NCBI RefSeq assembly: GCF_007991655.1
Contig: NZ_BJYT01000019.1
Span: forward strand, 1-64,000
Direction: 5' to 3'
Length of the DNA stretch: 64,000 nt
Source of the DNA: Segetibacter aerophilus
Lineage (GTDB): Bacteria > Bacteroidota > Bacteroidia > Chitinophagales > Chitinophagaceae
Shown here: one piece after another, positions 1,736 to 61,322 of the stretch
Layout: each line of letters starts with the position of its first letter
Numbering within the stretch: position 1 is the stretch's first letter
Made by a program: the position numbers and the translations under genes
The notes under the pieces: generated by a model
Told to the model about the DNA's origin: nothing
The model's input: the letters and a program-made list of their open reading frames with translations, nothing else
Databases searched by the model: none

Positions 1736-1792
1736 GTACAAGTGAGTGACACAACGAGGTTGAAAAAAGATATAAAGCTCGTAACAGAAAAA
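1736..1792 (+). repeat. GTACAAG dispersed element, copy 1
   Basis: Box 1 is GTACAAGTGAGTGACACAAC (1736-1755), followed by GAGGTTGA. After 25 nt comes the A-rich second box GTAACAGAAAAA. The copy points at the Gfo/Idh gene, whose ATG lies 29 bp beyond it. It belongs to the T/A subfamily (GTGACAC core). Confidence 0.85.
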
Positions 1793-1820
1793 TCTTCATA
1801 AAATCGTAAAACAAATTGTT

Positions 1821-3182
1821 ATGGATAAATCACGCAGAGAATTTTTAAAGCAAACAGCGATAACATCAACAGGAATGATCGTTGGTGCGAATGCTTTTAG
1901 TGCAAAAAGCTACGGTCGCATTATTGGCGCCAATGACCGTGTAAGAGTTGGTGTTGTTGGCTACTCCGACAGGCATCGCGGTTCGCACATGCCTTGTTTT
2001 ATGAACCACTACAAAGAACTGAATTTTGACCTGGTGGCTGTATCAGACATTTGGAAAAAAAGGCGCGAAGATGGGTCAGCAGCATGGAAAGAAAAAATGG
2101 GTCATGATGTAGTTGCGTGCCGCAACAACGAAGAGATGTATGATAAGAAACTGGTAGACGCGGTGTTTGTAAGCACAGCCGACTTTCAACATGCGTTGCA
2201 TGCCATTGAAGCTGTAAAAGCAGGTTGCGACGTCTATTGTGAAAAGCCGTTTGCAGAAACAATGGAAGATAACCGCGCCGCTTTAAAAGCCATTAAAAGC
2301 TCAGATAGAATTGTACAAATCGGTTCTCAAAGAAGAAGTGGCTCTAACTATCATGCAGCAAATGACTTTATAAGATCAGGCAAATTTGGGCCTATAACAA
2401 TGGTTGAATTGACATGGAACGTGAATCAACCGGGACGTTGGCGCAGAACTGCTTTATTGAATCAATTGAAGGAAGAGGATACTGACTGGAAGAGGTTCTT
2501 ATTGAATCGGCCAGCGGACAAGTTTGACCCGCGTAAATATCTTGAGTTCCGTTTATTCTGGCCTTACTCTTCAGGTTTAGCCGGGCAGTGGATGAGCCAC
2601 CAAATCGATACAGTGCATTGGTTTACTGGTCTGCAACATCCAAGAAGCGTGGTGGCAAATGGTGGAATTTATGTATGGAAAGATGGAAGAAAGAACTGGG
2701 ATACGATTTCAGCTGTTTTCGATTATGGTCCTGTAAATGATCCAACCTCTGGCTTCCAGGTTACGTTCGGCTCACGGATGCATAATGGTAGCGATAATCC
2801 TACTGAAATTTATTACTCAAACGGCGGAGAGCTAAACCTCGATACAAATAAGGTTACGCCAAAAGGTGGCTTGACAAAAAGACTTGCTGCGGAGATGAAT
2901 ATGGAAGCGAATCTGCTTCCCGAAACATCGCTGTCAGAAGTTGAGAAGGTGGTAACATCTGCAAATACCGGTGGAGACAAACTGACTTCAAACCACATCA
3001 GAAACTGGATGGAATGTATCAGGAGTCGCAAGCAACCAAACGCGCCGGTTGAAGCAGGATATAGCCATTCCATTGCTACCATCATGACGAATGCTGCCGT
3101 ACAAACAGGAGCTAAAGTAACTTTTGATGAGGCAAAGCAGGAGGTTATGGCAAATGGCAAACCTTTTAAATATTATGCATAG
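1821..3182 (+). CDS. Gfo/Idh/MocA family oxidoreductase, Tat-exported
   Basis: This 453-residue protein starts with a twin-arginine signal (SRREFLKQTAITSTGMIVGANAF), so it is probably folded with its NAD(P) cofactor in the cytoplasm and exported. The N-terminal Rossmann region reads VRVGVVGYSDRHRG, and the family motif CEKPFAETMEDN, whose lysine belongs to the catalytic EKP motif, follows around residue 140. The C-terminal alpha/beta domain carries the substrate-side sequence GLAGQWMSHQIDTVHWFTG with the usual histidines. Family members oxidise or reduce sugars and inositols. Position directly after a DUF1080 gene suggests glycoside C3 oxidation or reduction of a 3-keto sugar; the exact substrate cannot be read from the sequence. 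Confidence 0.88.
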   Translation: MDKSRREFLKQTAITSTGMIVGANAFSAKSYGRIIGANDRVRVGVVGYSDRHRGSHMPCFMNHYKELNFDLVAVSDIWKKRREDGSAAWKEKMGHDVVACRNNEEMYDKKLVDAVFVSTADFQHALHAIEAVKAGCDVYCEKPFAETMEDNRAALKAIKSSDRIVQIGSQRRSGSNYHAANDFIRSGKFGPITMVELTWNVNQPGRWRRTALLNQLKEEDTDWKRFLLNRPADKFDPRKYLEFRLFWPYSSGLAGQWMSHQIDTVHWFTGLQHPRSVVANGGIYVWKDGRKNWDTISAVFDYGPVNDPTSGFQVTFGSRMHNGSDNPTEIYYSNGGELNLDTNKVTPKGGLTKRLAAEMNMEANLLPETSLSEVEKVVTSANTGGDKLTSNHIRNWMECIRSRKQPNAPVEAGYSHSIATIMTNAAVQTGAKVTFDEAKQEVMANGKPFKYYA

Positions 3183-3335
3183 TAAGTTGCTAGTCGGAAC
3201 CTGTTAGTCGCGAGTTGTTAGTTGTTGTTGATCGCTAATTGTTAATCGCTAATCGTTGGTCGCGAGTTCTACAATGTTGATCCTTACTTGCGATTAACGA
3301 CTTACGATTTCCGACCTCGTGGTTCATTTTTTGAT
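3183..3335. repeat. intergenic word array (TTAGTCGC / GATCGCTAATTG words)
   Basis: The region is built from near-repeats such as GTTAGTCGCGAGTTGTTAGT, GATCGCTAATTGTTAATCGC and TAATCGTTGGTCGCGAGTT. Its two ends are loosely inverted (AGTCGGAA near 3193 against TTCCGACC near 3311). No reading frame is preserved. It is the same kind of structure as the arrays at 20.2 kb, 39.8 kb and 42.0 kb, but made of different words. Confidence 0.55.
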
Positions 3336-3356
3336 ACTATTAGCCAAAAAAACAAT

Positions 3357-3596
3357 ATGAGTAATCAAAACAATAATGAGGAGCAAGCGCCGGAACAAAA
3401 GTCGAACACGGTAAAAGACCCAGATCAATGGACAACAGGCGCAGAGCCAATGACTGGCGCACAAAAGTCTTATTTGAAAACACTGTCGGATGAAGCAGGA
3501 GAGGAAACAGACGAGAACCTGACCAAAGCTGAGGCATCAAAGAAAATAGATGAGCTGCAGCATAAAACCGGACGGGGATTGAATAACGGGCAGTAG
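3357..3596 (+). CDS. DUF3072 protein
   Basis: A 79-residue, acidic and polar protein. The C-terminal half reads MTGAQKSYLKTLSDEAGEE and then LTKAEASKKIDELQHKTGRG, the signature of DUF3072, a small family of unknown function found in many environmental bacteria. I chose the ATG at 3357 (MSNQNNNEEQ); an upstream in-frame start at 3288 would run back into the intergenic word array. No membrane segment or signal peptide. It stands alone, with a strong bidirectional terminator after it. Confidence 0.8.
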   Translation: MSNQNNNEEQAPEQKSNTVKDPDQWTTGAEPMTGAQKSYLKTLSDEAGEETDENLTKAEASKKIDELQHKTGRGLNNGQ

Positions 3597-3653
3597 TAAA
3601 GTTTAGGGTTTTGGTTTGATATGTGTCGAGTTTGAGTTCACGAGCTTTAAAGG

Positions 3654-3698
3654 AAATGGGAGTAAATATTGAAAACGGTCAATATTTGCTCCCATTTT
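3654..3698. terminator. bidirectional terminator between DUF3072 and the MFS gene
   Basis: A perfect 18-bp stem (AAATGGGAGTAAATATTG and its complement) closes an 8-base loop AAAACGGT, with T-rich sequence beyond the stem on the plus strand and A-rich sequence before it. It separates two converging genes. Confidence 0.85.
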
Positions 3699-3706
3699 CA
3701 TTTCCG

Positions 3707-5716: not shown

Positions 5717-5774
5717 GTGTTTTTGAAATCAGCTACTTAACTGTAATCAACATCGTTGTGTCACTCACTTGTAC
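5717..5774 (-). repeat. GTACAAG dispersed element, copy 2
   Basis: On the minus strand, box 1 GTACAAGTGAGTGACACAAC is followed by GATGTTGA, then 25 nt after box 1 by ATTTCAAAAACAC. It points toward the deoxynucleoside kinase gene and starts 6 bp past the end of the methyltransferase gene. T/A subfamily. Confidence 0.85.
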
Positions 5775-5779
5775 CCCAG

Positions 5780-6403
5780 TTATTTTTTTCGCCCAACAAA
5801 TCTTATGACTGAACCTTGTCCATTATGAAATACTCCTTCGCTCAACTCAATTTCCTTTTCTACTAATTCAACAATCTCATAATTCTCAAAGTCCGCCTTT
5901 AATTCATCAATTGAAAACAACATTCCGAGGTCTTTTGGCCCACCGACCTTTTCGTTCCTTTCAATGTATTCAAGGTGTTTTTTACTAAATGCTTCAAAAA
6001 TAACCGTCCCGTTTTTACGTAGATATTTGTCGAGAGCCTTGTGATAATACGATTTAACATCAGCCGGGAAGTGGGCATAGATTAAAGCGATCGCATCAAA
6101 CTGGTCGGCGCTAAATTGTAACGCCTTTAATTCACCCACCTGGTAATCAATTGTCACTTCATTCGCTTCTGCAAGTTTGAGCGCTTTGCTCCGGCCTTCA
6201 ACACTTATATCAAAAGCTGAGACTTTCCAACCCAGCCTAGCAGCAAAAACGGCGTTGCGCCCTTCGCCTTCTGCCGGAAACAGTATGGCGCCAGGCTTCA
6301 ACTTCTCCAACTGTTCCTTAAAATAGTTGTTAGGTTCTTCGCCATAGGCAAAGTCTTCGCTTCTATACCTGTCATTCCATCTCTCTGTCCAGGAATCGTT
6401 CAT
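5780..6403 (-). CDS. class I SAM-dependent methyltransferase
   Basis: A 207-residue soluble protein. The SAM-binding motif I appears as [19 protein letters not shown] (residues about 40-58), followed by the acidic motif [13 protein letters not shown] and a post-motif region [12 protein letters not shown]. The overall form fits the TehB-like/thiopurine-type methyltransferases with a short N-terminal [13 protein letters not shown] segment seen in tellurite/selenite-detoxifying and small-molecule methyltransferases. Substrate unknown. Single gene with its own promoter-like box upstream. Confidence 0.8.
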
Positions 6404-14594: not shown

Positions 14595-14685
14595 ATGACT
14601 AAATGTTGACTAAAGTTTAGGCATAAGATATTCTCTTACTTTAAAAGATTTCGGGATATAAAACGGAGAATAGCAAAAACAAAGT

Positions 14686-14740
14686 TGAAGAGTGCGACGC
14701 AACAAAAGCTTATTTTTGTCATCAGCCTGGCTCAAAACCT
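14686..14740 (+). repeat. GTACAAG dispersed element, copy 3 (5' end degraded)
   Basis: Here the initial GTACA is lost, but AAGAGTGCGACGCAAC remains, followed by AAAAGC and then, 25 nt after box 1, GGCTCAAAACC. C/G subfamily (GCGACGC core). It points at the stand-alone cheB, whose ATG is 120 bp further on. Confidence 0.8.
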
Positions 14741-14859
14741 TTCTATTATTTCTCCAAATTGTAAAGACTAAGAGTTGTTAATTCCTTTTGTGCTGCTAGC
14801 AAAAACTTTAGTGTTTAATTAAAAATGCAGTGAAAAGGGCGAAAGCTTAAAAACGTAAA

Positions 14860-20997: not shown

Positions 20998-21020
20998 AAA
21001 AGCCGAATTGCGTGATAAAC

Positions 21021-21078
21021 GTACAAGAGTGCGACGCAACGAAAGCTAAATAGTTTTAATTAGTTCGGTTCAAAACCT
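21021..21078 (+). repeat. GTACAAG dispersed element, copy 4 (inside groES-groEL)
   Basis: Box 1 is GTACAAGAGTGCGACGCAAC, followed by GAAAGC and, after 26 nt, GGTTCAAAACC. C/G subfamily. It lies between groES and groEL, ending 37 bp before the groEL ATG, so it must be transcribed if the two genes form one operon. Confidence 0.87.
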
Positions 21079-24970: not shown

Positions 24971-25071
24971 TAGTGGCTCGGCGGTTGACAATTCAAGGCT
25001 TAGTAGTATGAACGTTTATTTGCCACTTCTGTCAAAAACGTAAAATCGAATTGATTGTATGGAGGATACTA

Positions 25072-25128
25072 AAATTGTTTCCGGGCTTTTGTTAACTGTT
25101 TGGCTTTTGTTGTGTCACTCCCTTGTAC
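25072..25128 (-). repeat. GTACAAG dispersed element, copy 5
   Basis: Minus-strand box 1 is GTACAAGGGAGTGACACAAC, followed by AAAAGCC and, 25 nt later, CGGAAACAATTTT with CCGG just before. T/A subfamily with one changed base. It points away from copy 6. Confidence 0.82.
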
Positions 25129-25232
25129 CTTAGTTTGCTGCTCAGCGCTCTTAAACCTTCCGCCATCTCCCACTCTGATTAAATTGGTAGGCTTGTTACA
25201 AAAGCCGCGGAGCTGCCGCTTATAAAACAAAA

Positions 25233-25260
25233 GTACAAGTGAGTGACACAACAGAAGATG
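25233..25260 (+). repeat. GTACAAG dispersed element, copy 6
   Basis: Box 1 is GTACAAGTGAGTGACACAAC followed by AGAAGATG. The second box is not clear at the usual distance; a good match, CCTGGCTCAAAC, appears at 25328-25339, so the spacer may have grown. T/A subfamily. Copies 5 and 6 are divergent, with 104 bp between their first boxes. Confidence 0.82.
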
Positions 25261-25375
25261 CTATGAAATTCTTATGCTTGTATCATACAAAATCTCATCA
25301 CTCGAAAACGTAATTAATTCGAAGCTTCCTGGCTCAAACTTTTCTCAGCATAAGCAAGTAGTTTGAAGCTTTTAC

Positions 25376-29429: not shown

Positions 29430-29552
29430 CCTTTTTTAGTTTTACAACTTTCACTTGAAAAATCTCTTTAACCTTTGCACCACTTTTTCGCGAATAGAAT
29501 GGACTTTAAAAAAAAGTCGGTTTGACCGCGAAGGCTTAATAAAGATTTGCAG

Positions 29553-29608
29553 GTACAAGTGAGTGACACAACGATGTTGAAAGCGAACGAATGCCGGGGA
29601 ACAAAAAA
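29553..29608 (+). repeat. GTACAAG dispersed element, copy 7
   Basis: Box 1 GTACAAGTGAGTGACACAAC, then GATGTTGA, then CCGGGGAACAAAAAA ending 12 bp before the tex ATG. T/A subfamily, and one of the clearest examples of both boxes. Confidence 0.88.
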
Positions 29609-29620
29609 TAAAAAGTATTA

Positions 29621-33144: not shown

Positions 33145-33239
33145 CCTTACTTGGGGGTGTTTTTGATAAAGTCTTATAAAATTCTTTCAGAAGACATTGA
33201 TACTTACCGGAATGTCTTTGTCAAAGCAAATTACTTCAA

Positions 33240-33298
33240 GTACAAGTAAGTGACACAACGATGTCGATAAGAATTCCTGAAAATTCGGTTAATAAAAC
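33240..33298 (+). repeat. GTACAAG dispersed element, copy 8
   Basis: Box 1 is GTACAAGTAAGTGACACAAC (one base changed), followed by GATGTCGA and, 25 nt after box 1, TTCGGTTAATAAAAC. T/A subfamily. It points at the SNF2 gene, 115 bp downstream. Confidence 0.84.
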
Positions 33299-33412: not shown

Positions 33413-36283
33413 ATGGCAGTAGTGAAAGTTGAAAAAAAAATTGCAATATTATTATCACCACATGAGCTGGATAGCAAGTTCCGGTTGCTGGAGTCACTGC
33501 ATATTCAGAAATCTGATAAAGGGATTGAGTACGACCTTTTTGATTTGCATAACAAAGAGCTGAATAAAAATTACCTGCACCTTCCGGAGGTCGTAAGAGA
33601 TCTGCTTGTTCACTTCAGCCCCGACGCATTCACCAAATTCCAGTATAAAGTAGGTCAACCCTTTCTTGATAAAAAGCCGACAGACGCCGAATTAAATCTT
33701 ATTCTTACAACAACCCATCGGCACTTTCACCAGTTATTTGATAAGCTAAAACCTTTTTCAGGTCTTCTTAAATGGTATCATAGAACCAGGCTTCCTGACG
33801 GTAAAAGTTTTCGAATGTCTCCCTGCGCTTTTAGTAGCTATAAGCCACAGCTCGTTTTTCATGTGGCTAACGAAAATGGCAGGCTTGTTTTAAAAACTGA
33901 GGTTATTCTCAATGGAGCGTCGTACAATCTGAAAGAGTTCAACCGGTATCATTTTTTGCTTGAAAATAGTAATGAGTATTTTCTGCTTTCTTATAAGGAC
34001 TACCAGACTTTGCGATGGCTTGCTGAAAAAAATCGGGGTCAGTATGGTGACGACCCGGTTGCATTTTCACAACACATACTTACTAAACTCGAGCTTGATT
34101 ATAAAGTAAATCGATATAATTTCTTCAGTAAAAAAGAGATTAGAACAATACCTGTTAACCGGGTGCTTCTTAGTGAATTGAATGGTTCTTTTTTAATGCT
34201 AACTCCACAATGGGTGTACGATGGGTTTGTGCTTGAAAACCCTTGGAAAGAAAGTTATGAAACGGTAGTGGACGGTGAGGCGGTAGAGATTGTTCGTAAT
34301 AAGGAAGCAGAAGATGAATTCCTGAAAAAGTTAGTGGGTATGCATGCAAATTTTTCAAATCAGCGTAATGGGTATTACTATGTTTCTTTTGGGGAGGCAC
34401 AAAAAAAACAATGGTTCTTAAAAACGTATCATCATCTTCTTGCCGAAGGTATCGAACTGGTAGGAATGGATATGTTGAACCATTTCAGGTACTCGCCATT
34501 TGAAGTAGCAACTACAGTAAAAATAAAGCAGGAAGAGAAGGGTAAAGTGCTGATGCAAATGACCGTGTCTTTTGGTAAAGAAGAATTGCGTTTGAGTGAA
34601 CTACAGAAGATGTTGCTGGCCGGGCAAAAAGCAGTGTTGTTAAAGGATGGAAGTTTGGGGGTTTTACACGAGGAATGGATGCAACAGTATTCGTCGATCC
34701 TAAAGCATGGAAAAATAAATAAAGACGAAATAGAAGTTGCGCGGGTGATGGCGATAAGCGAGCAACAATCAAACGGTGAGCGGCAGGTTTTAAAAACACT
34801 GATAAAAGATCAGTGGTGGCAGAAGTGGCAGCAGTGGCAAAATGGAAGCGACAATATTTATGAACTTCCCGCCTCTGTGAATGCGAGCCTGAGGCCATAC
34901 CAGCAAAAAGGATTTGAGTGGCTTACACTATTGGCCGAAGCGGGTGCAGGTGGATGTCTCGCTGACGATATGGGCCTTGGTAAAACACTACAGACAATTT
35001 GTTACTTGGCATATTATATTCATCATAATCCAGATTCTGTAAATATTATAGTTTGCCCTTCGTCTCTCATATTTAACTGGCAACAAGAGTTGCAAAAGTT
35101 TACTCCTGGAATTACATCCGTTGTATATCATGGTGCCTCCCGAAACGCCACAGATATTGCTAATACTAAAAGCCAGGTTATTATCACCAGCTATGGAACG
35201 GTACGTGCAGACTCGGATGTATTATTGGCAAATGATTATGGAGTTGCTGTAATTGATGAGAGCCACAATATTAAAAATCCTTCTGCCCAAATCACTACCG
35301 TCGTTAACATGATTCCTGCCCAGGTCCGCATTGCGTTGAGCGGTACACCTGTTGTTAATAATACTTTCGATTTGTACGCGCAACTCAATTTCGCGTTGCC
35401 AGGAATGTTTGGCAGTCGCGAGTTCTTTAAACGCGAATATGCAGATGCAATAGATCGAAATCATGATGAAGAAAAAATCAAAGCGCTTCAAAAGCTGACG
35501 GCGCCTTTTATCTTGCGAAGAACGAAAGAGCAGGTAGCAAAAGACCTTCCAGATAAAACTGAAATGATCTTGTGGTGCAAAATGAACAGCAGGCAACATG
35601 ACTTATACAATAACATTAAGGACCAGATCAGGGGAAATATCTTTCTCGATATTAAAAATAATGGCTTAAATAAGAGCAAACTAGCAGTGTTGCAAGGGAT
35701 GCTTAAACTAAGGCAAATTTGCAATTCTCCGTTATTGTTGCCGGTTTCGGAACAAGAGGCATGTACAGATTCAATCAAGACAGAAGTGTTGATTGGAGAA
35801 CTGAAAAACATTTTAAAGGAACATAAGGCACTTGTTTTTTCCCAGTTCAGCAGTATGCTTAACCTGCTTGCGGAAGAGTGCGATAAGCAAGACATTGCCT
35901 ATTATCATTTTGATGGTCAAACTCCCCCTGCAAAACGAATCGAAATGGTGAATGCCTTCCAGGAAAAAGACAACGCCACGAACTTGTTTTTAATTAGTCT
36001 GAAAGCAGGAAACACAGGTCTCACACTCACTGCTGCTGACTACGTTTTTCTGTTCGACCCTTGGTGGAACACAGCGGTGGAGCAACAGGCTATTGATAGA
36101 ACGCATCGTATCGGCCAAACAAAGAATGTGTTTGCTTATAAGATAATTTGTAAGGATACAATTGAAGAAAAGATCATCCAGTTACAACAGCGCAAGAAGA
36201 AGTTAGCAGAAGAACTCGTAGGTGAAGATGACGGATTTATTAAAGCTCTTAATGAAGAAGATATAGCCTATTTGTTTAGTTAA
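33413..36283 (+). CDS. SNF2-family DEAD/DEAH helicase
   Basis: A 956-residue ATP-dependent translocase. The N-terminal ~480 residues are a family-specific region with no motif I recognise. The SNF2 motor follows: RPYQQKGFEWLTLLAEAG and Walker A LADDMGLGKTLQT near 518, Walker B VIDESHNIKN near 615, LSGTPVVNN, then the C-terminal helicase lobe with SGLTLTAAD-like SLKAGNTGLTLTAADYVFLF, DPWWNTAVEQQAIDRTHRIG near 885. The last residues are a helical tail ending in EEDIAYLFS. Such proteins move along DNA and displace bound proteins, for example RNA polymerase in RapA. No restriction or DISARM-type partner lies beside it. Confidence 0.92.
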   Translation: MAVVKVEKKIAILLSPHELDSKFRLLESLHIQKSDKGIEYDLFDLHNKELNKNYLHLPEVVRDLLVHFSPDAFTKFQYKVGQPFLDKKPTDAELNLILTTTHRHFHQLFDKLKPFSGLLKWYHRTRLPDGKSFRMSPCAFSSYKPQLVFHVANENGRLVLKTEVILNGASYNLKEFNRYHFLLENSNEYFLLSYKDYQTLRWLAEKNRGQYGDDPVAFSQHILTKLELDYKVNRYNFFSKKEIRTIPVNRVLLSELNGSFLMLTPQWVYDGFVLENPWKESYETVVDGEAVEIVRNKEAEDEFLKKLVGMHANFSNQRNGYYYVSFGEAQKKQWFLKTYHHLLAEGIELVGMDMLNHFRYSPFEVATTVKIKQEEKGKVLMQMTVSFGKEELRLSELQKMLLAGQKAVLLKDGSLGVLHEEWMQQYSSILKHGKINKDEIEVARVMAISEQQSNGERQVLKTLIKDQWWQKWQQWQNGSDNIYELPASVNASLRPYQQKGFEWLTLLAEAGAGGCLADDMGLGKTLQTICYLAYYIHHNPDSVNIIVCPSSLIFNWQQELQKFTPGITSVVYHGASRNATDIANTKSQVIITSYGTVRADSDVLLANDYGVAVIDESHNIKNPSAQITTVVNMIPAQVRIALSGTPVVNNTFDLYAQLNFALPGMFGSREFFKREYADAIDRNHDEEKIKALQKLTAPFILRRTKEQVAKDLPDKTEMILWCKMNSRQHDLYNNIKDQIRGNIFLDIKNNGLNKSKLAVLQGMLKLRQICNSPLLLPVSEQEACTDSIKTEVLIGELKNILKEHKALVFSQFSSMLNLLAEECDKQDIAYYHFDGQTPPAKRIEMVNAFQEKDNATNLFLISLKAGNTGLTLTAADYVFLFDPWWNTAVEQQAIDRTHRIGQTKNVFAYKIICKDTIEEKIIQLQQRKKKLAEELVGEDDGFIKALNEEDIAYLFS

Positions 36284-36339
36284 GTTTTTGTTGCCGGCTT
36301 TGGTACACGCCCAAACATTGTTGTGTCACTCACTTGTAC
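36284..36339 (-). repeat. GTACAAG dispersed element, copy 9
   Basis: Minus-strand box 1 GTACAAGTGAGTGACACAAC, then AATGTTTG, then CCGGCAACAAAAAC whose end abuts the SNF2 stop codon. T/A subfamily, pointing into the 3' end of the SNF2 gene. Confidence 0.85.
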
Positions 36340-36407
36340 TTTAAAACATTTGGAGCAGAAATTCGTAAAAGAAAAAAATAGGAGTACTTGTCAACCGTGC
36401 TTTAAAA

Positions 36408-37304: not shown

Positions 37305-37523
37305 ATACCTTATAATTTTACTTTCTGCTCGATAGACCAGCGAATTGTATGTCTGTCGCTGTTATTGAATGATCAAAACTTCTCAAAACGCGAAAGTAAT
37401 TGTTTTATATAAGTCTATCAAATTAATAGACTTTTTTTAGGCAAAAGCTTGTTAATGGTTTCGACAATGACATGAGTTAAGACCACAGACAGATTTTGAC
37501 TATGAAGATTTGAAAAACAAAAT

Positions 37524-37580
37524 GTACAAGTGTGTGACACAACAATGTTACTTTTTGGTGAACCGCTTGTTACCAAAAAA
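37524..37580 (+). repeat. GTACAAG dispersed element, copy 10
   Basis: Box 1 is GTACAAGTGTGTGACACAAC, then AATGTTAC, and exactly 25 nt after box 1 GTTACCAAAAAA. T/A subfamily, with T instead of A at position 10. It points into the 3' end of recF. Confidence 0.85.
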
Positions 37581-37581
37581 T

Positions 37582-41099: not shown

Positions 41100-41109
41100 T
41101 AGTAGAAAT

Positions 41110-41166
41110 TTTTTTTGCCGGACAGAAGAAATTGGCCGTTGCATTGTTGCGTCGCACACTTGTACT
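41110..41166 (-). repeat. GTACAAG dispersed element, copy 11
   Basis: Minus-strand box 1 GTACAAGTGTGCGACGCAAC, then AATGCAAC, then TCCGGCAAAAAAAA about 24 nt further. C/G subfamily, pointing into the 3' end of ribH. Confidence 0.85.
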
Positions 41167-41243
41167 TTTAGTCTTTTTATTGATCATTTTTCTTAAGTCC
41201 ATATTACGGATGTAAGAGTTAAACTCCCTTTAAGGGCTAGGGC

Positions 41244-43250: not shown

Positions 43251-43365
43251 TTTACCAGATGTAGAACGTAGTGTGGCCTGTAAATTTGGCAAATCTCCAA
43301 AACCGATCTTTATACCCCAGTTACAGCGCATACAGCCCGGGAAGCAGGTGCAACAAGTTATAAAA

Positions 43366-43423
43366 GTACAAGTGTGCGACGCAACAAAAGATGCCATAAC
43401 CCCTTTGTTGGTTTCATAAAAAC
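43366..43423 (+). repeat. GTACAAG dispersed element, copy 12
   Basis: Box 1 GTACAAGTGTGCGACGCAAC, then AAAAGATG, and at 25 nt GTTTCATAAAAAC. C/G subfamily, pointing at the ABC ATPase gene 66 bp further on. Confidence 0.85.
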
Positions 43424-46154: not shown

Positions 46155-46175
46155 GTTTTGCCTTTTTGGCAAAAC
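46155..46175. terminator. small hairpin after the Nudix gene
   Basis: GTTTTGCC-TTTTT-GGCAAAAC is a perfect 8-bp stem. It precedes a stronger terminator and may be a leftover or an additional stop. Confidence 0.45.
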
Positions 46176-46196
46176 GTTTATCAATTACTTTAAAGT

Positions 46197-46244: not shown

Positions 46245-46270
46245 TTCTTTTATTATCCAAAGTATCACTA

Positions 46271-49237: not shown

Positions 49238-49246
49238 AAATCGCCG

Positions 49247-49254
49247 CAAAAATA
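49247..49254 (-). promoter_or_regulatory. -7 box TATTTTTG for the GlcD/GlcF fusion
   Basis: On the minus strand TATTTTTG fits TAnnTTTG exactly and lies 9 bp before the ATG at 49237. It overlaps the alternative ATG at 49249, which favours the later start. No -33 box at N19. Confidence 0.45.
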
Positions 49255-49312
49255 AGCTGTTTTTAAAGAAAGGGTGATTATTGAAGTTGGCTTAGAAATA
49301 GAAGATTAAAAT

Positions 49313-49373
49313 GTTTTTTATTGGCCAGACTATAGTGCTTCTATCAATCATCCGTTGCGTCGCACTCTTGTAC
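49313..49373 (-). repeat. GTACAAG dispersed element, copy 13
   Basis: Minus-strand box 1 GTACAAGAGTGCGACGCAAC, then GGATGATT, then CTGGCCAATAAAAAAC 25 nt after box 1. C/G subfamily. It points toward the GlcD/GlcF fusion gene, between divergent genes. Confidence 0.84.
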
Positions 49374-49501
49374 TTTGTATATAAAAGATGGGCTTTTCTT
49401 AAACAGCTAAATGTTCTGCATCAGCACGAAGATGACGGGTACAAATTTTGAACTGAACGGTTAGTTAAAAGGGAATTAGACATTACACAAAAACTTAACT
49501 A

Positions 49502-49996: not shown

Positions 49997-50001
49997 GCTT
50001 A

Positions 50002-52218: not shown

Positions 52219-52292
52219 GAAAGAGAAATTTTACTTTAAACCATTTAAGGCATTAAAGTACCAAATGAAATAATGCTGAAATATAAAATTCA

Positions 52293-52350
52293 GTACAAGT
52301 GAGTGACACAACGATGTTGATAGAATTACTACCGGCAGTTACCAAAACAT
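52293..52350 (+). repeat. GTACAAG dispersed element, copy 14
   Basis: Box 1 GTACAAGTGAGTGACACAAC, then GATGTTGA, then CCGGCA and GTTACCAAAACA 25 nt after box 1. T/A subfamily. It points into the 3' end of glmS. Confidence 0.87.
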
Positions 52351-52372
52351 TTTGTTACAACTACCTATTGCT

Positions 52373-54208
52373 TTATTCTACTGTAACTGATTTCGCAAGA
52401 TTGCGAGGTTTATCAACATCCAAACCTTTTGCAATGCCAATGTAATAACTAAGTAACTGAAGTGGAATAACACTCAGCAACGGAGCCATCGTCTCATCTG
52501 CATCAGGCACGAACATTACATCATCAGCCATGCCCGGAATGATTTCGTCGCCTTCCGTCGCAACAGCAATCACCTTACCCTTTCGCGCTTTAATTTCCTG
52601 TACGTTAGAAACAATCTTTTCGTAGTATTTATCTTTTGTAGCTACAAAAACGACCGGCAGTTTATCATCAACAAGCGCGATCGGACCGTGCTTCATTTCG
52701 GCAGCAGGGTAGCCTTCAGCATGTATATAAGAAATCTCTTTCAGCTTTAAAGCACCCTCAAGAGCAACAGGAAAGTTATAGCCCCGACCGAGATAAAGGA
52801 AGTCCGTCGCATCTTTATATTTCTCTGCAATTGCCTGTATGTTGGAAGTGTCTTTTAGTATCTGCGAAACTTTTTCGGGGACGTCGTGCAATTCAGTTAA
52901 GAGGTGCTGGTATTTTTTTTCGTCGATTGTGCCTTTTGCATAAGCTATTTTTAAAGCCATCATAACCAGGACAGCTAGCTGACCGGTAAAAGCTTTAGTG
53001 CTTGCTACGCCTATCTCTGGACCTGCATGAGTGTAAGCACCGGCGTTACTCAATCTTGCTATACTGCTGCCAACGGCATTGACTACCCCGAATATAAAGG
53101 CACCTTTTTCTTTGGCATTTTCAAGCGCAACTAATGTGTCTGCCGTTTCTCCGCTCTGCGAAATGGCAACAATAACATCACCTCTATTAATCACCGGGTT
53201 GCGGTAACGGAACTCGCTTGCATATTCGACTTCAACCGGTATACGACACAAGTCCTCAATCCAATACTCTGCTAAAAGTCCTGCATGCCAGCTCGTACCG
53301 CAGGCCACCATGACGATTCTTTGTGCATTGATTAATGCGTTCAAATGATTGTCTACCCCGTTCATAGTGATGGTACCTGCAGCAGGGTTTAAACGACCAC
53401 GAAGGCAATCTAAAATACTTTGAGGTTGATCATAGATTTCCTTCAGCATGAAATGATCGTAGCCACCTTTTTCAATTGCTGCCAATTCCATGTCCAGCTT
53501 TTGGATGAAAGGGGTTTGCTTTTCGTTGCCGAGGTTTTTAAGTATCAATTCATCGGGCCGCACAATGGCGATCTCGTAGTCGTTTACATACACAACCTCC
53601 TTGGTATACTCAACGATTGGAGAAGCATCGGAAGCAAGGAAATGTTCGCCCTTGCCAATTCCAATAACAAGCGGGCTTCCTTTCCGGGCCGCAATGATTG
53701 TTTCAGGATCATCTTTATCTACCAGCAAAACGCAGTATGCGCCCACCACTCTTTTCAGTGCAATGCGAAGAGCTTGCTCTAACGTACAATTGTTGTTTTG
53801 CTTAATGTCTTCGATAAAGTTCAATAGTACTTCAGTATCTGTATCGCTCTTAAACTGGTAGCCTTTGTTTACCAGTTCTTGTTTTATAGAGGCATAATTT
53901 TCTATAATGCCATTATGGATCATCGCAAAACTACCTCCGGCACTTTGGTGGGGATGCGCGTTTCTATCACTTGGTTCGCCATGTGTTGCCCAGCGTGTAT
54001 GTCCGATACCTACGTGTGCATGCATGTCTTTGCCTACCACAGACTCCTCGAGCTCGCTCACTTTGCCTTTCTTTTTGTAAACTTTCAACTCACTGTTTAC
54101 AAGCGCCACTCCTGAGCTATCATATCCCCGGTATTCCAGTCTTTTCAATCCTTTTAATATAACCGGGTAAGCCTCGCGGGGACCGGTGTAACCTACAATT
54201 CCGCACAT
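52373..54208 (-). CDS. glmS: glutamine-fructose-6-phosphate aminotransferase
   Basis: The 611-residue enzyme makes glucosamine 6-phosphate, the first step of peptidoglycan and amino-sugar synthesis. The glutaminase part starts MCGIVGYTGPREAYPVILKG with nucleophile Cys2, followed by GIGHTRWATHGEPSDRNAHP. Two SIS isomerase domains follow: VMVACGTSWHAGLLAEYWIE, VIVAISQSGETADTLVAL and FLYLGRGYNFPVALEGALKL, EISYIHAEGYPAAEMKHGPI, ending KPRNLAKSVTVE, the normal C-terminus. No ribozyme is expected in this phylum. Divergent from the GNAT gene. Confidence 0.96.
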   Translation of the reverse strand: MCGIVGYTGPREAYPVILKGLKRLEYRGYDSSGVALVNSELKVYKKKGKVSELEESVVGKDMHAHVGIGHTRWATHGEPSDRNAHPHQSAGGSFAMIHNGIIENYASIKQELVNKGYQFKSDTDTEVLLNFIEDIKQNNNCTLEQALRIALKRVVGAYCVLLVDKDDPETIIAARKGSPLVIGIGKGEHFLASDASPIVEYTKEVVYVNDYEIAIVRPDELILKNLGNEKQTPFIQKLDMELAAIEKGGYDHFMLKEIYDQPQSILDCLRGRLNPAAGTITMNGVDNHLNALINAQRIVMVACGTSWHAGLLAEYWIEDLCRIPVEVEYASEFRYRNPVINRGDVIVAISQSGETADTLVALENAKEKGAFIFGVVNAVGSSIARLSNAGAYTHAGPEIGVASTKAFTGQLAVLVMMALKIAYAKGTIDEKKYQHLLTELHDVPEKVSQILKDTSNIQAIAEKYKDATDFLYLGRGYNFPVALEGALKLKEISYIHAEGYPAAEMKHGPIALVDDKLPVVFVATKDKYYEKIVSNVQEIKARKGKVIAVATEGDEIIPGMADDVMFVPDADETMAPLLSVIPLQLLSYYIGIAKGLDVDKPRNLAKSVTVE

Positions 54209-54218
54209 GATTTCCTTA

Positions 54219-54226
54219 TAATTTTG
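54219..54226 (+). promoter_or_regulatory. -7 box TAATTTTG for the GNAT gene
   Basis: TAATTTTG matches TAnnTTTG and lies 57 bp before the GNAT ATG, within the short divergent region shared with glmS. No -33 box at N19. Confidence 0.35.
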
Positions 54227-54283
54227 GGTGCAATATCCTTATTTTTAATTAATAAAGCCAACTCCAACATCACAGCTTATACT

Positions 54284-54883
54284 ATGAAAAATCACATTGA
54301 CCTTACTAACGAATATGTTCTAGAGAACTCAAACGTATTACTACGCCCATTACGTATTTCCGATCTCAATAATTTGTTGAAGTTCAGCATCGAAGAACCT
54401 GATTTATGGAAGTACTCGTTGTTGACTGCTGCCGGTGCCGACAACCTGCAGAAGTATATCCAGGTAGCGGAGAAAGGTCGGGCGCAACAGAAGGAGTATC
54501 CCTTTATTGTGTTTGACAAAAAGAGAAACGAGTATGCTGGTAGTACCCGGTTTTATGATATCCAACCCGAGTATCAAACGGTGCAGTTGGGTTACACCTG
54601 GTATGGAAAAGACTTCCAGGGAACGGGAGTGAATAAGAACTGCAAATACCTGTTACTCGAATTTGCTTTTGAGATTTGGATGGTGGAGCGGGTTGAATTC
54701 AGAGCAGATAATAACAACGAAAGAAGTATCGCCGCAATGAAAAGCATTGGTTGTACAGTAGAGGGTGTCTTAAGGAGCAACATGCCAAAGCGAGAAGGAG
54801 GAAGAAGGGATTCAATTGTTTTATCCATTTTACAAGAAGAATGGAAAAATGGGATAAAAGAGAATTTGAGAAGTAGGATATAA
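54284..54883 (+). CDS. GNAT family N-acetyltransferase (RimJ/RimL-like)
   Basis: From the ATG at 54284 (MKNHIDLTNEYVLENSNVLL) the product is 199 residues. Acetyl-CoA binding features: VLLRPLRISDLNNLLKFS at the start, then YEYAGSTRFYDI-like EYAGSTRFYDIQPEYQTVQL and TWYGKDFQGTGVNKNCKYLL (the Q/RxxGxG/A motif in relaxed form), then VERVEFRADNNNERSIAAMK. The pattern fits RimJ/RimL-type acetyltransferases of ribosomal proteins or antibiotics; the target cannot be told. Confidence 0.84.
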   Translation: MKNHIDLTNEYVLENSNVLLRPLRISDLNNLLKFSIEEPDLWKYSLLTAAGADNLQKYIQVAEKGRAQQKEYPFIVFDKKRNEYAGSTRFYDIQPEYQTVQLGYTWYGKDFQGTGVNKNCKYLLLEFAFEIWMVERVEFRADNNNERSIAAMKSIGCTVEGVLRSNMPKREGGRRDSIVLSILQEEWKNGIKENLRSRI

Positions 54884-54884
54884 A

Positions 54885-54937
54885 GCTTTACGTTCCGATC
54901 GGTATAGCCCTGATTGAACATTGTTGCGTCGCAGTAC
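54885..54937 (-). repeat. GTACAAG dispersed element, copy 15 (shortened)
   Basis: Minus-strand GTACTGCGACGCAAC lacks five bases of box 1 but keeps the C/G-type core; AATGTTCA and then CGGAACGTAAAG follow, the latter ending next to the GNAT stop codon. Confidence 0.72.
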
Positions 54938-55011
54938 GTTCATCAGTTGTAGTCCTATTAAGCTGTGCTTAGTAGATGGCATAAAATAAGAACGCGCGCA
55001 AAAATCTCTTC

Positions 55012-56184
55012 TTAACGATACTTGTACCACGAACCTGTGTTGAATAGAAGGATGGTTTCATCTTCCTTTATCCAGGCATTAGTCAAAAGCTTTTGCATCC
55101 CTTTATAAGTTGCACTTCCCTCAGGAGACAACAACATTCCTTCCTGGCTGGCTACCTCCCGTATGCCTTGTTGAATTTGATCTTCACTCACTGTTATTAC
55201 AGTTCCCTTGCTTTCCTGTACTACCTGTATCATTAAATCTTTCGCAAACGGAAAAGGCACAGCGAGGCCATAAGCCAAAGACGGTTGAGGATTATAATTA
55301 TTTGAAAGTGCACCGGATTTAAAAATTTCCATCATAGGTGCACAAATCTCACTCTGTACAATCACCATTTTAGGAAGCTTTCCCTTTATCCAACCAAGTT
55401 TCTTCATTTCTTTGAAAGCCTTCCACATGCCTATTAATCCGGTACCACCACCGGTAGGATAAATAATCACATCAGGGAGTCGCCAGTTTAATTGTTCTGC
55501 AATTTCAAATCCCAAAGTCTTCTTGCCTTCCAGCCGGTAAGGCTCTTTCATGGTAGACATATCAAAATAGCCCTTCTCCTCTGATAACTGTTTGGCCAGC
55601 TTTCCACATTTGTCAATCAATCCATCTAGCAATATCAGCTCGGCGCCGAACAGCCGGCATTCTTCTTTAAGGGTTTCTGTGGTATGTCTTGGCATTATGA
55701 CCGTAGCTTTTATATCGGCTTTTGCGCAGTAGGCAGCCATTGCGCCGCCTGCATTTCCTGCCGTGGGTATTACTACGTTTTCAATTCCAAACTCTTTGGC
55801 TTTTGAAATTGCCATACTGATGCCGCGCGCCTTAAAAGAGCCGGTTGGGTTTACGCTCTCGTCTTTTATTAAGATCTTAGCTATGTTGGTTTTTTGTGCA
55901 AGTTTATCCAGTGAATGAATTGGCGTCCATCCTTCGCCGAGGCTTACAATGTTTTTTTCATCAAACACAGGGAGCAGTTCTGCGTAACGCCACATCGTCA
56001 ATGGCCTGTTCTTAAGCGCCTCTTTTAGAAAGGGCTGATCAAGATATTCAGTTATTAGGGGCTGATTGCAGCAGGTTGCAAAAGATTGCAAAGAATGAAT
56101 ATCATACTCTTTATTGCAATGCGGGCATTGAAGGTTTTTGGCAAGAGATATGGTTTCTTGAAAAGTTTCGGGTGCTATTGGCAT
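55012..56184 (-). CDS. thrC: threonine synthase-like PLP enzyme
   Basis: The 390-residue protein belongs to the PLP fold type II threonine synthase group. It has an N-terminal zinc-ribbon-like LQCPHCNKEYDIHSLQSFAT ending CCNQPL, the PLP-lysine motif DESVNPTGSFKARGISMAIS near 110-128, and the phosphate-binding IIYPTGGGTGLIGMWKAF. It makes threonine from O-phosphohomoserine, or performs a related elimination. The usual thrA/thrB genes are not nearby. It lies 52 bp after a LysR gene on the same strand. Confidence 0.82.
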   Translation of the reverse strand: MPIAPETFQETISLAKNLQCPHCNKEYDIHSLQSFATCCNQPLITEYLDQPFLKEALKNRPLTMWRYAELLPVFDEKNIVSLGEGWTPIHSLDKLAQKTNIAKILIKDESVNPTGSFKARGISMAISKAKEFGIENVVIPTAGNAGGAMAAYCAKADIKATVIMPRHTTETLKEECRLFGAELILLDGLIDKCGKLAKQLSEEKGYFDMSTMKEPYRLEGKKTLGFEIAEQLNWRLPDVIIYPTGGGTGLIGMWKAFKEMKKLGWIKGKLPKMVIVQSEICAPMMEIFKSGALSNNYNPQPSLAYGLAVPFPFAKDLMIQVVQESKGTVITVSEDQIQQGIREVASQEGMLLSPEGSATYKGMQKLLTNAWIKEDETILLFNTGSWYKYR

Positions 56185-57145: not shown

Positions 57146-57225
57146 ATCGTCGGTTTTATTTCAAGTCGGAGTCTTAATTGCCAGAGAAATAATTGCTTTT
57201 TCTTAAGCATAATAAACAACAAACA

Positions 57226-57281
57226 GTACAAGAGTGCGACGCAACAAAAGCATCATGGTGTGATTAGTTGCTTCAACACAA
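57226..57281 (+). repeat. GTACAAG dispersed element, copy 16
   Basis: Box 1 GTACAAGAGTGCGACGCAAC, then AAAAGCAT, and CTTCAACACAA 25 nt after box 1. C/G subfamily, pointing into the 3' end of lpdA. Confidence 0.84.
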
Positions 57282-57411
57282 TTTGATTTCAAAGTAAAGA
57301 ACATATTGAGTTGCCTGCGCAAATCTGCTTTGCCATAGTTGCGTCAAAACCTTTTACTTGTAAATTTTAATTCGGCTTCATGGTCAAGGTTCTACTGTCG
57401 CTGTTATGAAA

Positions 57412-60054: not shown

Positions 60055-60167
60055 AATAAGGGACGACTTACACCTTTGGCCTATCGCCCTATATGCTTCT
60101 ACAAAGGCCGCGATTTTGTACCAAAAAGTTCCCTTTTCTAAAATTTATCTTCAGGCATAATAGTTAT

Positions 60168-60175
60168 AAAGGAGG
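60168..60175 (+). promoter_or_regulatory. strong Shine-Dalgarno sequence
   Basis: AAAGGAGG with a 5-base spacer before the ATG at 60181 is a near-perfect ribosome-binding site. Most genes in this window have none, so it stands out and fixes the start codon. Confidence 0.65.
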
Positions 60176-60180
60176 CAAAT

Positions 60181-60663
60181 ATGGCAAATCCTTCTCCTGT
60201 ATCAGACGTTTATAAAATCATAAGAGGACAAGTTGAACATGTAGATAACAACCTGGGGCAACGGGTTATATGGCTTGTAATAGCTCAGTCTTTCTTCTTC
60301 GGCGCTTATGCGTCTTTAATCAATGGAAAACCTGCAAAGCCAGAACTGGATCTAATCCACGGCGCATTAATCAAAATTTTGCCGATTGCGGCTCTATTAA
60401 CTGTACTGTTTACTTTCATTGACGTGATTAGTTCCATCGTGTACATGTATGGATTACGGAAGAAATATGAAGCCAGTCTAAATACAGACGTTGATGTAGA
60501 TAGTGCTTACCCAAATATCACCGGGTCAAAAGCGCAACGATTTTTTATGCATGCATCACCCATTTTGATACCCCTTCTTTTCATTACTGTCTGGATAATA
60601 CTACTGTATGTTCAATACAAGTCTCCGGCCGCAATGCCCGCACCTACGCCCATGCCGAAATAA
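60181..60663 (+). CDS. hypothetical membrane protein, three spans
   Basis: A 160-residue protein I do not recognise. Hydrophobic segments: VIWLVIAQSFFFGAYASLIN (about 29-48), ILPIAALLTVLFTFIDVISS (about 63-82) and ILIPLLFITVWIILLYVQYK (about 128-147), with a cytoplasmic-like helix at the start (YKIIRGQVEHVDNNLGQR) and a proline-rich tail (PAAMPAPTPMPK). Its strong Shine-Dalgarno site and unusual start context set it apart from neighbours. It ends 1 bp from the converging next gene. Confidence 0.65.
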   Translation: MANPSPVSDVYKIIRGQVEHVDNNLGQRVIWLVIAQSFFFGAYASLINGKPAKPELDLIHGALIKILPIAALLTVLFTFIDVISSIVYMYGLRKKYEASLNTDVDVDSAYPNITGSKAQRFFMHASPILIPLLFITVWIILLYVQYKSPAAMPAPTPMPK

Positions 60664-60664
60664 T

Positions 60665-61183
60665 TTATACAGACTTTAATACAGGGCCAATCTTTTTTGA
60701 TAGCCAGCTGTCTTTTACAGGGATTAACCATTTGTCTAACAATTCAGCTTTTGTTTGAACGAGGTTATTGAAATAAATAGTTTCGGGAGTTATGAAGTTA
60801 TTTTCAACCGCATACTTAAGTTGGGAGAGTGGTAGTAACTCAATTTTATCTTTTACAAGAAATGCGAGATTCTGCCTGTTAAACATATCAACCTTGAAGG
60901 TCTCTTCGATTGACTTAATAAGTCTTACACTACTGTCGGTACTGCAACCACTGACACCGGCCTGGGTTTCATCGGCCATCAGAATAATAAACTGGCCGAA
61001 AAGAAGGTTGGCATAACCTTTCACTTTTGCTCCGTGGGAGTTCCAGTTTTCGGTGAAGACGTTCATCATATCTTCTATCTCAAGCGCTTCTCCAATTGAA
61101 AAGAGGCGGCTTGACTGATAGATCCATACACGTGATGATGGGTGAAAATTTTCAGGGATCAAGTGTTTATATTCTAAGTTCAT
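60665..61183 (-). CDS. conserved hypothetical protein (often mis-named ABC transporter ATPase)
   Basis: Starting at ATG 61183 (MNLEYKHLIPENFHPSSRVW) the protein is 172 residues. It matches a Bacteroidota family sometimes labelled ABC transporter ATPase, but it has no Walker A or signature motif, so the name is wrong. Visible elements: WIYQSSRLFSIGEALEIEDM, NWNSHGAKVKGYANLLFGQF, then GCSTDSSVRLIKSIEETF and a helical C-terminus. Cytoplasmic; function unknown. It begins upstream of GTACAAG copy 17. Confidence 0.7.
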   Translation of the reverse strand: MNLEYKHLIPENFHPSSRVWIYQSSRLFSIGEALEIEDMMNVFTENWNSHGAKVKGYANLLFGQFIILMADETQAGVSGCSTDSSVRLIKSIEETFKVDMFNRQNLAFLVKDKIELLPLSQLKYAVENNFITPETIYFNNLVQTKAELLDKWLIPVKDSWLSKKIGPVLKSV

Positions 61184-61263
61184 TTTGTATGATTTTAGTA
61201 TCAATGGTGGCTACAATGAAAATGTAACCGCCGGAATGTAAGAGTGGTTAATTAAGTGTTGCA

Positions 61264-61322
61264 GTACAAGTGAGTGACACAACAATGTTTAAGTCATATT
61301 CAACTGTCAGCAACAAGGAAAC
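61264..61322 (+). repeat. GTACAAG dispersed element, copy 17
   Basis: Box 1 GTACAAGTGAGTGACACAAC, then AATGTTTA, and AGCAACAAGGAAAC at 25 nt. T/A subfamily, pointing into the 3' end of the Cys-rich Fe-S gene. Confidence 0.84.

What the first reader, a model, noticed from the sequence alone, without database searches (positions are those of the whole stretch)
1736..61322. Seventeen copies of a two-box intergenic element (GTACAAG family)
Seen directly: the 20-base box GTACAAGTGAGTGACACAAC or its variant GTACAAGAGTGCGACGCAAC occurs at 1736(+), 5774(-), 14688(+), 21021(+), 25128(-), 25233(+), 29553(+), 33240(+), 36339(-), 37524(+), 41166(-), 43366(+), 49373(-), 52293(+), 54937(-), 57226(+) and 61264(+). 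That is about one per 3.8 kb. All copies lie outside annotated genes, on both strands. Eight point at the start of a downstream gene and nine point into the 3' end of a gene, which argues against a simple promoter or terminator. I do not recognise the family. A REP-like or nonautonomous mobile element is the leading inference, with a protein-binding site as alternative.
Basis: partly seen in the sequence, partly recalled or inferred. Interest (0 to 1): 0.78.

Follow-up and report, generated by a model that had tools for sequence, protein, structure and literature searches.

The report
Oriented intergenic DNA sites bracketing genes
Some bacteria of one family carry hundreds of copies of a short directional DNA signal in the gaps between genes, and close neighbouring copies mostly point in opposite directions, which hints at an unknown protein that marks the edges of gene-sized pieces of chromosome.

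Summary
The copies are real and far above chance: 16 of the 17 listed are clear, one is decayed, and I found one more decayed copy. The element has three boxes, not two, spans about 78 bp and is asymmetric: box0 GCTGAATA, box1 the 20-mer, box2 GCYGGTNAC plus an A-run. Box1 has two types, GTG-A-CAC (T) and GCG-A-CGC (C). In a phylum sample it was found only in the host family (0 of 381 genomes outside); copy number there is very uneven (0 to 737 matches). At orthologous gaps in sister species the type is mostly kept (26 of 29 pairs) while flanks have diverged almost to randomness. It takes little notice of gene direction. Its A-rich end lies against gene edges, often flush with a stop codon. 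Two copies in one gap are back to back in 116 of 122 cases, never direct; neighbours across one gene also tend to be inverted (39/43; repeats 34/44 and 12/20). REP/RAYT, structured RNA, Bacteroidota promoter, intrinsic terminator and transposon cargo were tested and not supported. Best reading: a protein-binding DNA site marking gene edges, used in inverted pairs, perhaps first spread as a mobile element. The protein is unknown.

The parts
1714..1793 (+). element, T type (box1 1736-1755)
5717..5796 (-). element, T type (box1 5755-5774)
14662..14741 (+). element, C type, box1 mutated at its start (14684-14703)
20999..21078 (+). element, C type (box1 21021-21040), between groES (Cpn10) and groEL (Cpn60)
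25071..25150 (-). element, T type (box1 25109-25128); left half of a back-to-back pair
25211..25290 (+). element, T type (box1 25233-25252); right half of the back-to-back pair
29531..29610 (+). element, T type (box1 29553-29572), upstream of a Tex-like gene; a copy at the same place in G579, G582 and, as a degenerate C type, G576; none seen in G098, G172, G580, G581
33218..33297 (+). element, T type (box1 33240-33259); copy in G578, G579, G581, G582, and a C-type copy in G576 (truncated locus)
36282..36361 (-). element, T type (box1 36320-36339); shared with G578 and G581
37502..37581 (+). element, T type (box1 37524-37543); no copy found in the six relatives looked at, three of them truncated
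41108..41187 (-). element, C type (box1 41146-41165); clear in 5 of 8 relatives, degenerate in G581, absent from G098 and G577
43344..43423 (+). element, C type (box1 43366-43385); shared with G578, G579; not seen in G172, G577
49316..49395 (-). element, C type (box1 49354-49373); shared with G578, G579; not seen in G098, G172, G580, G581
52271..52350 (+). element, T type (box1 52293-52312); same orientation in G578, G579, G582, G098; a C-type copy on the other strand in G172; not seen in G576, G577, G580, G581
54882..54961 (-). decayed C-type copy with about 5 nt missing in box1
57204..57283 (+). element, C type (box1 57226-57245)
61242..61321 (+). element, T type (box1 61264-61283); shared with G579

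Best explanation
The element is an asymmetric, sequence-specific protein-binding site on double-stranded DNA, about 78 bp with three boxes. SHOWN: consensus and extent; two classes, T and C, in which the two arms of an inner dyad change together; restriction to one family in the genomes sampled; little tie to gene direction; A-rich end against gene edges; back-to-back pairs within gaps; opposite orientation of close neighbours; retention of position and type at several window loci over long times. INFERRED: one or two related proteins, probably dimers reading the GTG-A-CAC / GCG-A-CGC dyad, bind box1 and touch box0 and box2. Bound sites act with polarity as edge marks of gene-sized segments. 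Either two oppositely oriented sites up to about 3 kb apart are bridged, or each bound site blocks something (polymerase, a spreading protein) that leaves a gene towards the gap. The sites probably spread long ago in lineage-specific bursts and are now kept by selection.
For: Own genome: 120 exact T-type 20-mers, 0 in the reversed control. Three-box model: 295 copies in 1.26 Mb of three genomes, 0 in shuffles. Dyad: positions 11 and 15 complementary in essentially all of 350 copies (obs 1.00, exp 0.75). Independence from genes: letters left of box1 are nearly the same beside a gene start and a gene stop; neighbour classes 40 opp/opp, 39 same/same, 18, 15 in own. Polarity: box2 end faces the nearer gene edge in 221 of 294 and 246 of 323; 103 stop codons but 8 start codons lie 55-64 nt from the start of box1 on that side. 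Pairs: 116 of 122 two-element gaps are '-+', 6 '+-', none direct. Neighbours inverted: 45/45 below 600 bp, 49/52 at 600-2000, 73/96 at 2-4 kb, 29/62 at 4-8 kb; second data set 80/80 below 600, 25/29 at 600-1200, 38/56 at 1.2-2 kb; genome-contig loci 25/26, 22/24, 14/22 for the first three ranges. Age: type kept in 26 of 29 orthologous pairs; flanks 61 and 67% identical against 57% for random DNA.
Against: No binding protein was identified and no binding or structure test was run. The neighbour rule across one gene is clear in own+G141+G058 (39/43) and in further G141 sequence (34/44) but not in G149 (12/20, p=0.5). In G149 it fades beyond 1.2 kb (16/26 at 1.2-2 kb), and viral contigs break it more often (direct 1 of 4 below 600 bp, 2 of 5 at 600-2000). 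Copies with a close inverted partner on the gene-facing side are not better conserved than those without (53.5 against 53.6, p=0.57; gap-facing side 54.7 against 51.7, p=0.04). Presence of homologues does not differ between genes inside and outside brackets, though inside genes have slightly higher GC3. Box1 identity of 92% at orthologous gaps is inflated because gaps were chosen for holding a box1, and in some pairs only one flank aligned. The lineage-specific sequence after box1 looks like amplification of lineage-specific masters. Several relatives lack the copy at a given gap or hold another type or strand there.
Confidence: 0.36

Rival explanations
1. Non-autonomous mobile element family: an enzyme supplied in trans inserted these units next to gene edges, A-rich end towards the gene. 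Lineage-specific masters amplified at different times and most copies are now old, some exapted.
For: Very uneven copy number in related genomes (0 to 737). The stretch after box1 differs by lineage: GATGTTGA in T-type copies of own and the genome-contig loci, GGCGATGCC in G058 and G149. Gaps gain, lose or replace copies of other type and strand. Copies occur on IMG/VR viral contigs.
Against: No near-identical copies in the stretches sampled: best pair identity over 80 nt 0.75 in own (117 copies), 0.82 in G141 (97), 0.88 in G058 (66). Among 80 bracketed proteins the eight Pfam families found in two or more include no transposase. No direct-orientation pairs in 122 two-element gaps, which random insertion would give.
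Confidence: 0.3
2. Signal for DNA uptake or polar recombination (DUS/USS-like or Chi-like) that directs transformation or repair recombination into core genes.
For: Family-specific dialect, high copy number, concentration in gaps, AT-rich flanks; bracketed genes slightly richer in GC3 and with more Pfam families in the samples scanned (136 in 80 proteins of 29,959 residues against 88 in 85 of 22,718), part of which is simply greater length.
Against: Known uptake signals are about 10-12 bp and partly in genes (recalled); this one spans 78 bp and avoids genes. The neighbour orientation rule is not a known property of such signals (recalled). Competence was not tested.
Confidence: 0.12
3. Polar transcription roadblock or factor-dependent terminator that stops RNA polymerase leaving a gene towards the gap, on either strand.
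For: Facing rule and flush position after stop codons; in own, about 3 of 59 tandem-gap gene ends with an element within 200 nt have an intrinsic terminator against 19% of 237 without an element.
Against: In the second genus no such deficit is seen (21 and 24% against 28%). Preference for gene ends over gene starts is weak: 340 against 273 right-hand neighbours. Copies are common in longer divergent gaps.
Confidence: 0.12
4. The orientation rule is only the footprint of deletion: direct repeats recombine and remove what lies between, so mainly inverted neighbours survive.
For: Depletion of direct pairs falls with distance; second neighbours, which are direct, are also rarer than expected below 2 kb (8 observed, 16.5 expected, summed over three genomes).
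Against: Depletion hardly depends on sequence identity: direct pairs below 2 kb are 0 of 52 mixed T/C and 3 of 45 same-type (counted), and 10 of 92 mixed and 12 of 73 same-type in the second set (counted). Homology-driven deletion should spare mixed pairs.
Confidence: 0.06
5. Structured small RNA or leader element.
For: Constant size and fixed spacings; a small hairpin can be drawn after box1 in both lineages; a few other column pairs show raised complementarity (9 with a box2 column, 22-26, 24-30, 24-38).
Against: Those pairs do not stack into a helix and follow the two classes and lineages (my reading); consensus folds are near 0 to -3 kcal/mol; no Rfam match at the element; both orientations relative to genes used alike.
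Confidence: 0.04

Closest known systems
REP/BIME with RAYT (TnpA_REP) (features recalled)
   Same: Short, extragenic, high copy, more than one class, pairs in opposite orientation
   Different: Not a palindrome or hairpin; three boxes over 78 bp; no Y1 match in the copy-richest genome; orientation rule reaches across whole genes
ERIC/IRU, NEMIS/Correia and other MITE-like intergenic repeats (recalled)
   Same: Intergenic, dispersed, lineage-restricted
   Different: No terminal inverted repeats in the single unit, no conserved interior, no near-identical copies in the stretches sampled
DNA uptake sequences of Neisseriaceae and Pasteurellaceae (recalled)
   Same: Hundreds to thousands of copies, family dialect, AT-rich flank
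   Different: Far longer, almost never in genes, polar towards gene edges
Oriented boundary sites such as eukaryotic CTCF sites (recalled; analogy only)
   Same: Asymmetric site, divergent pairs at boundaries, convergent sites around segments
   Different: No protein known, no contact data, spacing of gene size

Membership tests
REP/BIME with RAYT | imperfect palindrome or hairpin unit with GTAG/GTGG-type foot (recalled) | tested here: not met
   no hairpin in consensus folds, no stacked covarying helix
REP/BIME with RAYT | Y1 (PF01797) transposase in genomes that carry many copies | tested here: not met
   G141, the richest and on one contig, has 0 matches; G172 also 0; G000 3, G058 2, G149 3 matches
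REP/BIME with RAYT | transposase gene flanked by copies | tested here: inconclusive
   looked at one case only: G149 pair of Y1 genes, one element 335 bp away on one side, none within 10 kb on the other
MITE | terminal inverted repeats and target duplication around one unit | tested here: inconclusive
   single unit has no inverted termini; no closely related empty site was found, so target duplications could not be read
MITE | near-identical copies from recent spread | tested here: not met
   in 864 kb of own and 200 kb each of G141 and G058
Structured RNA family (Rfam) | match to a known family or covarying helices | tested here: not met
Intrinsic terminator | GC-rich hairpin followed by T-run | tested here: not met
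   T-run of reversed box2 is only sometimes preceded by a hairpin
Bacteroidota promoter (TTG / TAnnTTTG, recalled) | -33 and -7 motifs at fixed place | tested here: not met
   no sharp positional peak in the forward strand; a rise on the reverse strand is mostly the box1 letters themselves; the motif also separates gene starts poorly in this genome (106 sense, 68 antisense)
Transposon ends around cargo | mobile cargo or transposase between inverted ends | tested here: not met
   bracketed genes include GroEL, SRP54, EF-Tu-type GTPase, DnaB; gene order is kept in G579 and G578 over window 37.5-46 kb
DNA uptake sequence | preferential uptake of DNA that carries it | not testable with these tools
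   needs transformation assays
Protein-binding boundary site | specific protein bound in vivo | not testable with these tools
   no binding data

The most novel reading that the evidence does not exclude
A bacterial system of polar boundary sites: core genes or short gene runs are enclosed by inward-facing copies, gap interiors by outward-facing back-to-back pairs that are often of different type, so that a protein bridging or blocking at inverted sites divides the chromosome into gene-sized domains irrespective of transcription direction. This would be an orientation logic like that of CTCF sites, reached independently.
Probability: 0.13. Interest if true: 0.92.

Novelty: new variant of a known kind. 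Interest (0 to 1): 0.62.

Why it matters
Bacterial genomes hold many dispersed extragenic repeats (recalled), but a long, non-palindromic, two-class site whose copies obey an orientation rule across genes, largely independent of gene direction, turned up in none of my literature searches (open-licence PubMed Central only). If the rule reflects protein action, it gives a direct handle on how gene-sized chromosome segments are delimited in bacteria. If it reflects mobility, it shows a kind of orientation-coupled spread. Both can be tested with one bait and one knock-out. The density in some genomes is high: 104 copies in 200 kb of G141.

Tried and rejected
REP/RAYT: searched PF01797 over 195 family genomes (143 with a match) and again in six genomes by handle; the richest genome has none; one Y1 pair checked for flanking elements. 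RNA: Rfam with E up to 5 (two weak matches, neither at an element), folds, mutual information and complementarity with box0- and box2-anchored columns. Promoter: Bacteroidota motif scan, check by left context and a sigma-70-type scan of 36000-55200 (35 found, 38.9 expected); an apparent reverse-strand peak is caused by box1 letters. Terminator: hairpin+T scan near gene ends; deficit beside elements in own tandem gaps, none in the second genus. Copying of whole units: pairwise identities. Transposon modules with cargo: Pfam on a random 80 of 165 bracketed and 85 of 89 unbracketed genes taken from 1-2-gene intervals. Gene families flanked on both sides by elements: of 65 such genes one 9-member cluster of permease-like paralogues (named by eye) and three pairs. 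Neighbour elements sharing sequence: no clear excess. Phage relatives without insertion: the protein scan returned four loci, all identical to the query. GenBank phages: no match; plasmids: two weak matches at E 0.7. A polar replication signal was considered only from the mixed strand listing, not tested. Literature: search listings only; no paper was opened. PMC3733652, PMC5771137 and PMC8399275 were seen as listing and start of abstract.

Dropped before counts: copies within about 40-80 bases of a sequence end, duplicate sequences, and, in some counts, intervals of more than 6 genes. Column statistics used 428 copies of which 350 had a scorable box2. The three-box model was trained on copies from own, G141 (first 200 kb), G058, genome contigs and viral contigs, so those sets match it by construction; G149 and the later G141 stretches were not used in training. 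The p-value for mixed types in back-to-back pairs is against one half and ignores the unequal frequency of the two types.

Mended on re-check: G141 was searched again by handle; the second-set and viral orientation counts that weaken the rule were added; the phylum is not named by the tool, so outside genomes are called genomes of the same phylum.


Full report
OBSERVATION. The 20-base box is real. Two consensus searches find 12 and 7 places in the window (three shared, 16 distinct), against at most 0.01 expected. Of the 17 listed copies 16 are clear and one, 54937(-), is a decayed copy with about 5 nt missing in box1; another decayed copy lies at 57357(-). In the own genome (G000, 5.89 Mb) the exact T-type 20-mer occurs 120 times, 61 forward and 59 reverse, and 0 times read backwards.

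ANATOMY. A motif fit with free spacing shows three boxes: box0 GYTG[AC]ATA with its first G 18-19 nt before box1; box1, GTACAAG + 13; and box2, GYYGG(T or GT)NACANAAAAA, from about +41 to +43. Information in 621 copies is above background only from about -22 to +60. Box1 comes in two classes, T (A9 T11 A15) and C (T9 C11 G15). Positions 11 and 15, the arms of the dyad GTG-A-CAC / GCG-A-CGC, are complementary in essentially all of 350 copies. The C class carries one more G in box2. A few other column pairs show raised complementarity (9 with a box2 column, 22-26, 24-30, 24-38) but do not stack into a helix; I read them as a result of the two classes and lineages.

DISTRIBUTION. In 195 family genomes 69 have a match with up to one mismatch, in 43 of 101 genera, from 0 to 737 per genome, with 0 in the reversed control in every row. 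In 395 genomes of the phylum a degenerate pattern hits 6, all among the 14 of the own family; 0 of 381 others. A three-box model finds 120 copies in 864 kb of own, 104 in 200 kb of G141, 71 in 200 kb of G058 and none in shuffles, and, outside its training data, 199 in a further 400 kb of G141 and 134 in 326 kb of G149.

RELATION TO GENES. Gene calls are my own simple caller. 112 of 117 regex hits in own lie between called genes; neighbour classes are 40 opp/opp, 39 same/same, 18 and 15. The letters to the left of box1 are nearly the same whether the left gene starts or ends there. But the element is polar: its box2 end faces the nearer gene edge in 221 of 294 and 246 of 323 copies; 103 stop codons and 8 start codons lie 55-64 nt from box1 start on that side, so the A-run often abuts a stop codon. 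In tandem gaps with one copy the median margin on the box0 side is the wider one, both towards stops (own 103 against 33 nt, p=7e-5; g59, that is G141+G058, 57.5 against 30; contigs 86 against 42.5) and towards starts (169 against 64.5; 103 against 54; 152 against 61.5). In convergent gaps the left margin is wider in 28 of 41, in divergent gaps in 29 of 45 (p=0.085).

ORIENTATION RULE. Two elements in one gap are '-+' in 116 of 122 cases, '+-' in 6 and direct in none; two gaps with three copies alternate. '-+' prevails in all four gap types. Nearest neighbours (own, G141, G058) are inverted in 45/45 below 600 bp, 49/52 at 600-2000 bp, 73/96 at 2-4 kb and 29/62 at 4-8 kb. In further G141 and G149 sequence the values are 80/80 below 600, 25/29 at 600-1200, 38/56 at 1.2-2 kb and 43/65 at 2-3 kb. 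Genome-contig loci: 25/26 below 600 and 22/24 at 600-2000; viral contigs only 3/4 and 3/5. To exclude the effect of double gaps I took gaps with one copy separated by one gene: 39 of 43 inverted in the first set, 34 of 44 in further G141, but 12 of 20 in G149, not significant. In the window list, counting the two decayed copies, 14 of 17 successive steps alternate (my count). Intervals '+-' in G141 hold 1-5 genes in 41 of 42 cases, while 26 of 43 '-+' intervals hold none; in own 3 of 40 '+-' and 9 of 39 '-+' hold none, in G058 0 of 25 and 8 of 24. Back-to-back pairs are more often of mixed type, 78 against 40 (p=0.0006 against one half), although in G149 close inverted pairs are 19 same and 10 mixed. 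Deletion between homologous direct repeats does not explain the rule well: direct pairs below 2 kb are 0 of 52 mixed and 3 of 45 same-type in the first set, 10 of 92 and 12 of 73 in the second.

AGE. At gaps orthologous to window gaps in nine genus members (68-86% DNA identity in the genes beside the gap) copies are kept, lost or replaced. In 29 pairs with a copy on the same strand, some with only one flank aligned, the type agrees in 26. Box1 is 92% identical, but that figure is inflated because the pairs were chosen by box1; flanks are 61 and 67%, against 57% for unrelated DNA. So several copies have outlived the divergence of their surroundings. Window 1-28000 was not compared (one search failed).

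WHAT IT IS NOT. Rfam finds nothing at the element. Y1/RAYT: 143 of 195 family genomes have a PF01797 match but G141 has none, and neither has G172 with 63 copies; the two neighbouring Y1 genes of G149 have one element 335 bp away and none within 10 kb on the other side. No near-identical copies were found within 864 kb of own or 200 kb each of G141 and G058. No promoter motif is placed consistently. Intrinsic terminators are rarer beside elements in own tandem gaps but not in the second genus. Bracketed genes are ordinary and diverse, including GroEL, SRP54, an EF-Tu-type GTPase and DnaB; the comparison set of 85 unbracketed genes, which are shorter, has fewer Pfam families.

MECHANISM. Shown: a polar, two-class DNA site, old at several loci, placed by gene edges and mostly inverted relative to close neighbours. 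Inferred: double-strand binding by a dimeric protein reading the dyad, contacts with the flanking boxes, and action as a polar edge mark of gene-sized segments through bridging of inverted sites or blocking in one direction. Against it: no protein, no difference in conservation between copies with and without a gene-facing partner, no difference in homologue presence inside and outside brackets, weak replication in G149. The main rival is an old non-autonomous mobile family; the lineage-specific sequence after box1 speaks for it.

VERDICT. The finding is real and larger than reported. The REP label fails; the protein-site alternative is the better lead. Novelty: a new variant of the known kind 'interspersed extragenic element', with an orientation rule that none of the literature searches named above turned up.

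Noticed in passing
window 20266-20299 and 20511-20544; also 1689-1728: A separate CTGTCATC-type repeat forms a 34-nt inverted repeat (97% complementary, 211 nt apart) upstream of groES, with a related stretch at 1689-1728 next to another element.
   Followed up: no
window 20999-21078: A C-type element lies inside the groES-groEL gap, so the family can sit inside what is normally one operon.
   Followed up: partly
own contig C5 about 262-315 kb (L034-L036): A run of permease-like paralogues (MacB/FtsX-like by eye, not searched), several of them flanked on both sides by elements.
   Followed up: no
L042:4184, L058:450 and 3530: In these viral contigs the element takes up most of the gap between two ORFs (91 bp in L042); in L042 the stop codon of the upstream ORF falls at the end of box0.
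   Followed up: partly
G141, G058, G149 T-type copies: The stretch after box1 is often GGCGATGCC where own T-type copies have GATGTTGA; both can be drawn as a small hairpin with a GAT loop.
   Followed up: partly
G149:C91:74342-75518 (L276): Two neighbouring Y1-transposase-like genes, one element 335 bp beyond them.
   Followed up: partly
window 10847-10894 and 14874-14921: A 48-nt direct repeat (71%) at the start of two genes; looks like paralogous CheB-type starts, not checked.
   Followed up: no
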